Shown: in pieces, positions 15,732 to 17,344 of the stretch
Layout of the letters: each line of letters opens with the position of its first letter
Numbering within the stretch: the first letter of the stretch is position 1
NCBI GenBank assembly: GCA_018268675.1
Contig: JAFDWB010000092.1
Span: forward strand, 186,001 to 250,000
Direction: 5' to 3'
DNA: 64,000 nucleotides
Source: Actinomycetota bacterium
GTDB lineage: Bacteria; Actinomycetota; Thermoleophilia; Solirubrobacterales; 70-9
Notes under the pieces: generated by a model
Seen by the model: the letters and a program-made list of their open reading frames with translations, nothing else
Told to the model about the DNA's origin: nothing
The model's database searches: none
Position numbers and translations under genes: made by a program

Positions 15732-16112
15732 ATGACCCAGCTTTCCCACCCCGCGATCGTCTACGGAGCCGACCCGCTCTCCATCTCGCTGACCGTGCGC
15801 GGCCCGCGCACCCCGGCGATCTCCGGCGAGCCGGTGGAATCGGTGCACGTCTGGCACGACGACGGCCGCGCCCGCACGGGAGTGTGGGAGTGCACGCCCG
15901 GGAGCTTCGAGTCCGCCCGCCGAGGTGACACCGAGGTGATGCACTTCGTCGCCGGAGCGGGCACGATCACCAGCGCCGACGGGACGACCTACGAGATCCG
16001 ACCCGGCGCGGTGATCGTCGCCCCGGACGGCTGGAGCGGCGTCTGGGACATCCGCGAGACCGCGCGGAAGGTCTACACGATCTGGAGCACGGTCGAGGTC
16101 AGCCAGACCTGA
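15732..16112 (+). CDS. Cupin domain-containing protein
   Basis: A 126-residue single-domain cupin of the DUF861/EutQ-like type. VWECTPGSFESARRGDTEVMHFVAGAGTITSADG corresponds to the first cupin motif, with Glu and His usable as metal ligands, and IRPGAVIVAPDGWSGVWDI to the second motif. It follows the monooxygenase by 19 nt and is the last gene of the operon. Relatives include (S)-ureidoglycine aminohydrolase-type cupins, but this copy is half the usual size and its reaction is unknown. Confidence 0.8.
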   Translation: MTQLSHPAIVYGADPLSISLTVRGPRTPAISGEPVESVHVWHDDGRARTGVWECTPGSFESARRGDTEVMHFVAGAGTITSADGTTYEIRPGAVIVAPDGWSGVWDIRETARKVYTIWSTVEVSQT

Positions 16113-16119
16113 ATGCCAG

Positions 16120-16146
16120 CGTTAGGGTCTGTAACAGTCTCTAACG
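16120..16146. promoter_or_regulatory. 27-bp imperfect palindrome, candidate operator of the fic gene
   Basis: CGTTAG and CTAACG form the outer arms, CTGT and ACAG the inner arms around a central A, with 3 unmatched bases each side. The 10-mer CGTTAGGGTC recurs as a half site at 16161-16170, just before the -10 box. The Fic protein has a C-terminal winged helix, so autoregulation is plausible. Confidence 0.6.
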
Positions 16147-16174
16147 TTTTTAGGTGCATCCGTTAGGGTCGCGC

Positions 16175-16180
16175 TATCCT
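16175..16180 (+). promoter_or_regulatory. -10 box for a leaderless fic transcript
   Basis: TATCCT lies 6 nt before the GTG at 16187, the distance expected if transcription starts at the start codon. No ribosome binding site is present. Confidence 0.5.
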
Positions 16181-16186
16181 GGCGGT

Positions 16187-17344
16187 GTGGACCTCACCCT
16201 GTACCGCTCGACGCAGTTTGGCAGCGCGAGGCGGACTCCGGGCCGACATGGATACGTCGCCTACTTCCCGGAGCCGATACCTCGAGCACTCGATCTGCCC
16301 GTCTCCACCGTGATGGCCCTCGCCGATGCCGAGGCCGCGCTTGGGCAACTCGCTGCCGTCGGCGGGTTGCTGCCCAATCCGGAGCTTCTGGTTCGCCCGT
16401 ACCTGCTCCGGGAGGCCGTCTCCTCGACCCGCATCGAGGGAACGCGGACGACGATCGGGGAGGTGCTGGACGTGGACGCGGCGGGCACGACTCCGGGGGC
16501 GGACGTGGAGGAAGTGGTCAACTACGTCGAGGCGATGCGCTGGGGAGCGGGAAGGCTCGGCGAACTGCCGATCAGCTCGAGGCTTCTGCGGGAGATACAC
16601 GAACGACTGATGGCCGGTGTCCGCGGTCGCGAGCTCGCCCCGGGGGAGTTCCGCACGACGCAGAACTGGATCGGCCCGCCGGGGTCGACGATCGAGTCGG
16701 CGCCGTTCGTCCCTCCACCGCCGCCCGAGTTGCCTGAGCTGCTTTCCGACTGGGAGCGATTCGCCAACGAAGAACCGGAGCTTCCGCTCCTGGTCCAGGA
16801 CGCGCTCCTGCATGCACAGTTCGAGACCATCCACCCCTTTCTTGACGGGAACGGGCGGCTCGGGAGGCTGTTGCTCATTTTCTTCCTCGTCGCGCGCGGT
16901 CGTCTGCCTGCCCCGCTGCTCTACCTGAGTTCACACCTGGAGCGCAATCGGGGGGCCTACTACGGGGCGCTGCAGACGCTCCGTGAGTCGGGCGACGCGC
17001 TCCCCTGGATCGACCTGTTCCTGAGCTCCGTGGGGATCGAGGCGACGGACGCGGTCGGGCGTGCTCGTCGGATCATCGAGCTTCGCGACCGGTATCTCGA
17101 AGTGGCAGCTTCCCTCGGTACCGCCAACGCCCTGGCCCTTGTTGATCTGATCTGCGAGAACCCGGTGGTCACGACTCGCTCGATCGAGAACCACCTCGGT
17201 GTCACTCGCCCGACGGCACTCCGGTTGCTGCGACGGATGGAGGAACGCGGGGTCCTGAGCGAGCGGGAGACGGGGGCGCGTGGTCAGCGCCGATATGTCG
17301 CCGACGATCTGCGGGCGTTGGTGATCGGACGGGAGAAGGCCTGA
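16187..17344 (+). CDS. Fic family protein with C-terminal winged helix
   Basis: A 385-residue Fic protein, predicted to transfer AMP from ATP to a target protein. The catalytic loop is HPFLDGNGRLGR (H216 to R227), a perfect match to HxFx(D/E)GNGRxxR. The N-terminal segment holds S80-T-R-I-E-G85, matching the inhibitory (S/T)xxxE(G/N) motif, so it should be self-inhibited (class II). The C-terminus (about 300-385) has VTTRSIENHLGVTRPTALRLLRRMEERG, a winged helix. The GTG at 16187 fits the -10 box; an earlier in-frame GTG would begin upstream of that box. It stands alone between two operons. Confidence 0.93.
   Translation: MDLTLYRSTQFGSARRTPGRHGYVAYFPEPIPRALDLPVSTVMALADAEAALGQLAAVGGLLPNPELLVRPYLLREAVSSTRIEGTRTTIGEVLDVDAAGTTPGADVEEVVNYVEAMRWGAGRLGELPISSRLLREIHERLMAGVRGRELAPGEFRTTQNWIGPPGSTIESAPFVPPPPPELPELLSDWERFANEEPELPLLVQDALLHAQFETIHPFLDGNGRLGRLLLIFFLVARGRLPAPLLYLSSHLERNRGAYYGALQTLRESGDALPWIDLFLSSVGIEATDAVGRARRIIELRDRYLEVAASLGTANALALVDLICENPVVTTRSIENHLGVTRPTALRLLRRMEERGVLSERETGARGQRRYVADDLRALVIGREKA

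What the first reader, a model, noticed from the sequence alone, without database searches (positions are those of the whole stretch)
16120..16187. Composite palindrome and half-site array controlling a leaderless fic gene
Two nested inverted repeats (CGTTAG/CTAACG and CTGT/ACAG) form a 27-bp site, and the first 10 bases recur once more just upstream of TATCCT, 6 nt from the GTG. The Fic protein carries both an inhibitory motif (STRIEG) and its own winged helix. It may therefore be toxin, inhibitor and repressor in one chain.
Basis: partly seen in the sequence, partly recalled or inferred. Interest (0 to 1): 0.55.

Follow-up and report, generated by a model that had tools for sequence, protein, structure and literature searches.

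The report
Self-repressing promoter of SoFic-like toxin gene
A probable anti-phage enzyme gene carries, inside its own promoter, three copies of a short DNA site that its own DNA-binding end most likely uses to switch itself off, and many of its relatives carry repeats of this kind, which may explain how such toxic defence genes are kept quiet.

Summary
The reported repeats are real and conserved. In ten genes of the clade (the window's and nine orthologues, 62-77% identical) the promoter holds three 10-bp half-sites, A-> <-B C->. With gaps left free, 14 bp fits B-C best in nine and ties in one. A TANNNT box lies 6-9 nt before the start codon in all ten, which suggests leaderless transcription. 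The protein is a SoFic-like class II Fic with intact active-site and inhibitory motifs and a C-terminal winged helix. Of 176 non-redundant homologues, 118 (67%) have a strong inverted repeat just upstream (shuffles 13%, other genes' upstreams 21%); 71% of those 118 have a third half-site (null 21%). In five genomes two such genes carry unrelated repeats, which argues against a shared regulator. Autorepression by a Fic-HTH chain is proven for CccR, so the concept is known. New, as far as my searches reach, is the multi-half-site, apparently leaderless operator in SoFic-like genes. Binding and activity were not tested, and helix-operator covariation was inconclusive.

The parts
16120..16129 (+). 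half-site A, CGTTAGGGTC (probably auxiliary; 7/10 or 8/10 in seven of ten genes)
   Evidence: mean pairwise identity 0.62 over 10 genes
16137..16146 (-). half-site B, GTCTCTAACG (reverse complement CGTTAGAGAC)
   Evidence: identity 0.82; A-B inner gap 7 bp best in 8 of 10, tied in L010, 8 bp in L009
16161..16170 (+). half-site C, CGTTAGGGTC, just upstream of the -10-like box
   Evidence: identity 0.76; with gaps 5-25 allowed, a B-C gap of 14 bp scores best in 9 of 10 genes, ties in L010, and is best in L049 (58% identical)
16175..16180 (+). -10-like box TATCCT; no clear -35
   Evidence: TANNNT 6-9 nt before the start codon in 10 of 10, picked by eye; the sigma-70 consensus scan found none
16187..17344 (+). 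fic gene, SoFic-like, GTG start (385 aa)
   Evidence: the in-frame GTG at 16154 is unlikely because L009 and L010 have in-frame stops 9 nt before their starts
16424..16441 (+). class II inhibitory motif, residues 80-85 STRIEG
   Evidence: S80, I83, E84 and G85 invariant in 10 of 10
16832..16867 (+). Fic active-site motif HPFLDGNGRLGR, residues 216-227
   Evidence: invariant in 10 of 10 except L225 (I in one)
17123..17326 (+). C-terminal winged helix, residues 313-380; recognition helix 341-353 (RPTALRLLRRMEE)
   Evidence: H313-324, E327-329, H330-337, H341-353, E358-360, E369-371; block pLDDT 84-92 except 65 for residues 361-370; RPTALRLL invariant in 10 of 10

Best explanation
The 16120-16170 array is the dedicated operator of the fic gene, bound by the C-terminal winged helix of the Fic protein itself. 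Shown by sequence: three half-sites in fixed geometry, the last one against the -10-like box of an apparently leaderless promoter, kept with the gene in different neighbourhoods. Inferred: a Fic dimer (SoFic and CccR dimerise through N-terminal helices) grips B and C, whose centres are 24 bp apart, straddling the -35 to -10 region and excluding RNA polymerase; A is an auxiliary site that tightens repression. This keeps an auto-inhibited AMPylase at a low level; [quoted passage not shown] The likely role is anti-phage abortive infection, by similarity to SoFic.
For: Conservation confined to the half-sites: A 0.62, B 0.82, C 0.76 against spacers 0.27 and 0.33 and upstream flank 0.34, with a B-C gap of 14 best in 9 and tied in 1 of 10 genes. 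Of 19 places with CTAACG-N14-CGTTA in 232 genomes of the order, 6 are promoters of this fic clade (9 members there); the own genome has only this one. Neighbours differ. Family-wide: 118 of 176 homologues have an upstream inverted repeat of at least 9/10, 67% against 13% in shuffles, 11-14% in control stretches of the same loci and 21% upstream of 332 other genes. A third half-site of at least 8/10 in 71% of 118 against 21%. Two such genes of one genome have unrelated repeats in five genomes. CccR, with the same domain order and a class II motif, is a shown autorepressor with inverted repeats near -35 and -10 (passages).
Against: No binding or expression data for this protein. The helix-operator covariation test was weak: partial r 0.09 (p 0.002) given the Fic domain, while the Fic domain given the helix gave 0.12, and Fic-domain windows scored higher than the helix. 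58 of 176 homologues lack such an upstream repeat; of the six clade members among the 176 only L009 reaches 9/10, and the best repeat found for the window's gene (8/10) is not the array. Nine of 17 further Fic genes reach 9/10, eight do not. Of 19 readable control Fic genes, 5 also reached 9/10. The promoter scan found no promoter. CbFic2 bound random DNA, and CccR has two half-sites 26 bp apart, not three.
Confidence: 0.76

Rival explanations
1. The array is an operator, but for another host regulator (global, or of restriction or defence genes) that controls fic in trans.
For: 5 of 10 clade members seem to lie just downstream of hsdM or its remnant (by Pfam for L013; by eye, from a shared C-terminal peptide, for L009, L011, L012 and L015). 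The covariation test does not single out the helix.
Against: The exact B-C site is unique to fic in the own genome. The array persists in the 5 of 10 without a visible hsdM end. In five genomes two Fic-HTH genes carry unrelated repeats, e.g. CGTTAGGGTC against TTATCCAAAC in the window's genome. Upstream repeats occur in 118 of 176 homologues from many phyla.
Confidence: 0.13
2. The Fic winged helix binds the array but activates or anchors rather than represses; DNA binding mainly switches the AMPylase on, as in CbFic2.
For: CbFic2 activity is stimulated by DNA (passages). The C-terminal domain of apo EcSofic is twisted outward compared with ATP-bound SoFic, and deleting it abolishes toxicity.
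Against: Half-site C lies just upstream of the -10-like box, where binding should block polymerase. CccR is a repressor.
Confidence: 0.08
3. Chance repeats, or an RNA structure or terminator rather than a protein site.
For: The A-B pattern recurs once elsewhere in the genome inside a hairpin.
Against: Fixed geometry with letters conserved in the half-sites and not in the spacers; no terminator found; a leaderless start would leave the array untranscribed from this promoter.
Confidence: 0.03

Closest known systems
CccR of Yersinia pseudotuberculosis (PMC9755527; PDB 7xux)
   Same: Class II Fic with C-terminal HTH in one chain; inverted-repeat operator over its own promoter; inhibitory motif SARIEG (STRIEG here)
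   Different: CccR has two half-sites, AGATAATCAT-N26-ATGATAATCT (36 bp centre to centre), and is a secreted T6SS effector. Here there are three half-sites (17 and 24 bp centre to centre) and a leaderless-type promoter; secretion was not examined. Its structure matches less well than SoFic's (Foldseek TM by query 0.51 against 0.71-0.74)
SoFic, single-gene anti-phage Fic (PADLOC PDLC03963; PDB 3eqx, 3zcn; EcSofic in PMC12249575)
   Same: Full-length profile match 2.8e-106 and best structural match by E-value. SoFic relatives of Pantoea and Cedecea (65-67% identical to it) carry a perfect repeat ATCGACATAT-N7-ATATGTCGAT
   Different: 25-26% identity in the structural alignment; below the NCBIfam SoFic equivalog cut-off (144.5 of 550 bits); the 63 bp to the next gene leave no room for an AS1-sized gene without overlap; DNA binding of SoFic called undemonstrated in 2023 (passage)
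FIC protein of Mycobacterium marinum (PDB 7cb8)
   Same: Closest PDB chain by sequence (3.2e-34) and about as similar in fold as SoFic (TM 0.73-0.74)
   Different: No regulatory data seen here; its promoter was not examined
CbFic2 of Coxiella burnetii (PMC10628234; PDB 8cil)
   Same: Class II Fic with C-terminal wHTH, dimer, binds DNA
   Different: Bound random DNA, which stimulates its activity; the passages seen define no operator
CapW repressor of CBASS (PMC9122588)
   Same: A repressor on a palindrome that keeps a lethal defence system quiet
   Different: CapW is a separate protein; here repressor and effector would be one chain (abstract and outline seen)

Membership tests
Class II Fic AMPylase | Fic active-site motif HPFx[D/E]GN[G/K]R | tested here: met
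   HPFLDGNGR at residues 216-224, invariant in 10 of 10; Pfam Fic 70.6 bits against cut-off 24
Class II Fic AMPylase | N-terminal inhibitory motif [S/T]xxxE[G/N] (pattern recalled) | tested here: met
   STRIEG, residues 80-85
Class II Fic AMPylase | AMP transfer, relieved by changing the inhibitory glutamate | not testable with these tools
   needs an assay
SoFic anti-phage family | full-length profile similarity (PADLOC) | tested here: met
   PDLC03963, E 2.8e-106, profile 6-357 of 361; PADLOC's own acceptance threshold was not shown
SoFic equivalog (NCBIfam NF046030) | curated score 550 bits | tested here: not met
   144.5 bits; Pfam SoFic-like_C 18.4 against cut-off 27; hence 'SoFic-like', not SoFic proper
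SoFic-AS1 pair (E. coli H397) | 47-aa antitoxin gene downstream | tested here: not met
   63 bp to the next gene; overlapping small frames were not searched
SoFic anti-phage family | protects against phage | not testable with these tools
   needs phage challenge
CccR-type autorepressor | inverted-repeat operator overlapping its own promoter | tested here: met
   sequence and conservation only; promoter inferred from a TANNNT box
CccR-type autorepressor | direct binding and repression by the HTH domain | not testable with these tools
   EMSA, footprint and reporter needed
Two-gene type II toxin-antitoxin | separate antitoxin gene in the operon | tested here: not met
   neighbours are a cupin and a D-Ala-D-Ala carboxypeptidase

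The most novel reading that the evidence does not exclude
SoFic-like defence proteins are one-component immune switches: the same chain represses its own leaderless promoter through a multi-half-site operator that is widespread in the family, and operator occupancy sets the state of its AMPylase domain. Loss of operator binding during infection (fall in repressor, attack on host DNA, or a nucleotide-driven move of the C-terminal domain) would raise both the amount and the activity of the toxin at once. Each lineage has evolved its own operator code, so several such switches can coexist in one cell without cross-talk.
Probability: 0.18. Interest if true: 0.78.

Novelty: new variant of a known kind. 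Interest (0 to 1): 0.55.

Why it matters
How a lethal single-gene system such as SoFic is kept silent and then triggered is an open question in the 2025 EcSofic paper (discussion read), and a 2023 paper says that DNA binding by SoFic had not been shown (passage). A widespread operator turns this into a direct test with named sites in many organisms, laboratory strains among them. It would extend CccR's autorepression from one secreted effector to a large defence family.

Tried and rejected
Covariation of recognition helix and half-site: weak and not specific to the helix; reported as inconclusive. The sliding-window version was dominated by Fic-domain windows.

Fic proteins without a winged helix as a negative control: 20 regions fetched, 19 gave a frame (L269 did not). 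At the first start candidate 5 of 19 reached 9/10 (L265, L272, L276, L279, L280). At least two of the 19 (L271, L280) end in an HTH-like stretch, and L276-L279 are frames of 697-761 aa with uncertain starts. The six Doc-sized genes (L266, L267, L268, L270, L273, L274) gave 0 of 6. Too small and mixed to lean on.

Genome-wide over-representation of CTAACG-N14-CGTTA: not claimed. The reversed control pattern hits more often over the 232 genomes; the evidence is positional. One of the 13 other places lies about 300 bp beyond the 3' end of another fic (G071).

A first listing of upstream regions left minus-strand loci unturned and was replaced. A restriction-modification controller and a terminator were considered and rejected (see rivals).

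Literature: 10 searches in an open-access library only. Searches returned no paper (Fic + adenylyltransferase + DNA-binding domain + autorepress + promoter; Fic + phage defen + autoregulat + winged helix). Passages sought in PMC3667792 on DNA binding or transcription: none.

Rows dropped before counts: 226 loci with a match, 224 with a start codon, 222 with 160 nt upstream, 219 with at least 330 aa and a stop, 176 after removing those at 80% identity or more. Left out beforehand: L001-L007 and L074-L101. L064 (premature TAG, read only to the stop) and L105 (aberrant C-terminus) stayed in the 176.

On re-checking I mended: the count (9 of 17), the controls, the distance of the stops in L009 and L010, the pLDDT of the wing, the structural ranking of 7cb8, and the poor score of the window's clade by the family-wide detector.

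Full report
WHAT IS THERE. Three 10-bp half-sites lie in 51 bp: A CGTTAGGGTC 16120-16129 (+), B GTCTCTAACG 16137-16146 (-) and C CGTTAGGGTC 16161-16170 (+). TATCCT follows at 16175-16180 and the GTG start at 16187. The exact outer palindrome is unique in the window. The genome has one more (contig C95), which is the inner part of a longer hairpin. Clustering of three near-matches within 60 bp occurs once in the window. The consensus scan found no sigma-70-type promoter and no terminator at 16000-16300, so the -10 assignment rests on comparison. The stretch 16110-16186 is 52% GC in a 71% GC window.

CONSERVATION. Mean pairwise identity, with the B-C gap fixed at 14: A 0.62 (L009 counted one base out of register), 7-bp spacer 0.27, B 0.82, 14-bp spacer 0.33, C 0.76, 60-nt upstream flank 0.34. 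With the gap left free from 5 to 25, 14 scores best in 9 of 10 and ties with 10 in L010. For A, an inner gap of 7 scores best in 8, ties in L010 and is 8 in L009. A matches the consensus at 7/10 or 8/10 in seven of ten, 10/10 in L008, L009 and L011. The inner CTGT/ACAG repeat of the finding therefore lies in unconstrained spacer, and B-C, not A-B, is the best-kept pair. In L049 (58% identical, same phylum) B and C remain (16 of 20 letters, gap 14 best) while A is not recognisable (5/10). In all ten a TANNNT box, picked by eye, stands 6, 6, 6, 6, 7, 9, 8, 7, 6 and 8 nt before the start codon (L008-L016, L038), which would put the transcript start at or next to the start codon: leaderless, inferred. 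C lies just upstream of that box.

SPECIFICITY. CTAACG-N14-CGTTA without mismatch occurs at 19 places in 17 of 232 genomes of the order. Six of the 19 are promoters of this fic clade, which has nine members there, and in the window's genome it occurs once, here. The pattern is not over-represented as such (the reversed control hits more often); the evidence is its position. Neighbouring genes differ: a cupin and a D-Ala-D-Ala carboxypeptidase in the window, hsdM and hsdS in L013, other frames in L014, L016 and L038 (not identified by profile). Five of ten seem to lie just after hsdM or a remnant of it (L013 by Pfam; L009, L011, L012 and L015 by a shared C-terminal peptide, by eye).

THE PROTEIN. 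385 aa: Pfam Fic_N and Fic over cut-off, several HTH families below cut-off. PADLOC SoFic matches full length at 2.8e-106, but the NCBIfam SoFic equivalog cut-off is not reached (144.5 of 550 bits). The AlphaFold model (10-sequence alignment, mean pLDDT 71.6; parts of the Fic core below 50; winged helix 84-92 by block except 65 for residues 361-370) matches SoFic first by E-value (3zcn, 3eqx; TM by query 0.71-0.74), then 7cb8 (0.73-0.74), CccR 7xux (0.51) and CbFic2 8cil (0.48-0.54). The active-site and inhibitory motifs are intact. By sequence it should be an auto-inhibited AMPylase with a DNA-binding domain.

FAMILY-WIDE TEST. From the loci, 176 proteins under 80% identical to one another were kept (filters in Tried and rejected). 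In the 105 nt around and upstream of the chosen start, 118 (67%) hold an inverted repeat with at least 9 of 10 paired positions (dinucleotide shuffles 12.8%) and 46 (26%) a perfect one (0.8%). The stretch 300-405 nt upstream gives 14% against 10% (n=170) and a coding stretch 11% against 10%. Upstreams of 332 other genes in the same loci give 21% and 3.9% (shuffles 9.6% and 0.4%). Gaps between the 10-bp arms cluster at 12-16 bp (42 of 118), like B-C here. Of the 118, 71% have a third half-site of at least 8/10 (null 21%) and 42% of at least 9/10 (null 3%); the null shuffles single letters outside the arms. Limits: start codons were chosen by rule; the window's own clade does poorly by this detector (of six members among the 176 only L009 reaches 9/10, and the best repeat for the window's gene is not the array), so the window rests on the conservation test, not on this one.

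WHO BINDS. In five genomes two Fic-HTH genes carry unrelated repeats: the window's genome (CGTTAGGGTC; TTATCCAAAC-N12-GCTTGGATAA), G324 (CGTTAGGGTC; CTAAGTCGGC-N17-GCCGACTTAT), G086 (AGGCAAGGAA-N7-TTCCTTGCCT; GACACAAGTT-N10-AACTTGTGCC), G152 (TTCTTATTGG-N17-CCAATAAGGA; TTCGTAAGGA-N10-TCCTTACAAA) and G151 (GCTTTGAAAA-N14-TTTTCAAAGC; AAACGATATG-N2-CTTATCGTTT). Of the 17 further Fic genes examined, 9 had a repeat of at least 9/10 and 8 did not (L290, L293, L294, L295, L297, L300, L301, L304). This favours each protein reading its own site. A direct covariation test was only weakly positive and not specific to the helix, though the five NPTAR-helix proteins with a strong repeat all have TTTGAAAG/CTTTCA-type sites. 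SoFic relatives on plasmids of Pantoea and Cedecea have the perfect repeat ATCGACATAT-N7-ATATGTCGAT at -48 to -21; of eight plasmid records looked at, six reach 9/10 and two (Thermus thermophilus HB8, Sinorhizobium meliloti 1021) do not.

WHAT IS KNOWN. CccR, a class II Fic with C-terminal HTH, represses its own promoter through AGATAATCAT-N26-ATGATAATCT and must be a dimer for it (passages). Its authors note that Fic proteins with HTH domains are widely distributed (passage). CbFic2 binds DNA, which stimulates its activity, and its authors state that DNA binding by SoFic had not been shown (passages). The EcSofic paper (results and discussion read; the terms wHTH, helix-turn-helix, DNA-binding and transcription do not occur in its main text and 'promoter' only for vectors) shows a dimer, a C-terminal domain that is needed for toxicity and is placed differently from that of ATP-bound SoFic, and an antitoxin AS1, and leaves activation open. 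The concept is therefore known; I did not find the array, or its spread through SoFic-like genes, in the papers returned by the ten searches listed in Tried and rejected.

VERDICT. A real, conserved, gene-specific operator array, most likely for autorepression by the encoded protein. New variant of a known kind.

Noticed in passing
L001:1082-1146 (genome contig C25): A second SoFic-like Fic gene in the same genome has three half-sites of another sequence (AAGTTTGG, CCAAACTT, AAGCTTGG), then TAAACT 6 nt before ATG: the same layout with a different code (by eye).
   Followed up: partly
L006:1501-1527, L007:1501-1527 and genome contig C58; similar hairpin at L004:1501-1527 (C95): A palindrome, GTTCGCAGTTAGCCACAACWGTTGTGGCTAACTGCGAAC or close to it, recurs in the genome, apparently between genes; it looks like a REP or terminator family, and the C95 hairpin mimics the A-B site.
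   Followed up: no
L013:1-3826: An orthologous fic sits between type I restriction-modification hsdM and hsdS; in L009 the upstream hsdM looks decayed while fic and its array stay (by eye).
   Followed up: partly
L276-L279: Open frames of 697-761 aa share the SoFic-like N-terminus (seen in L276, L277 and L279) but have a long different C-terminal part.
   Followed up: no
L286, L287 (Thermus plasmids): SoFic-like genes lie between a helicase-related gene and a DUF1156 gene, possibly a defence island.
   Followed up: no
L182-L261: SoFic-like genes lie on IMG/VR viral contigs (80 loci kept), and 77% of 53 non-redundant ones have an operator-like repeat; phages may carry these switches.
   Followed up: partly
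L283:1120-2948 (IncF plasmid): A SoFic relative lies between a VirB4-type gene and another type IV secretion gene on a conjugative plasmid.
   Followed up: no
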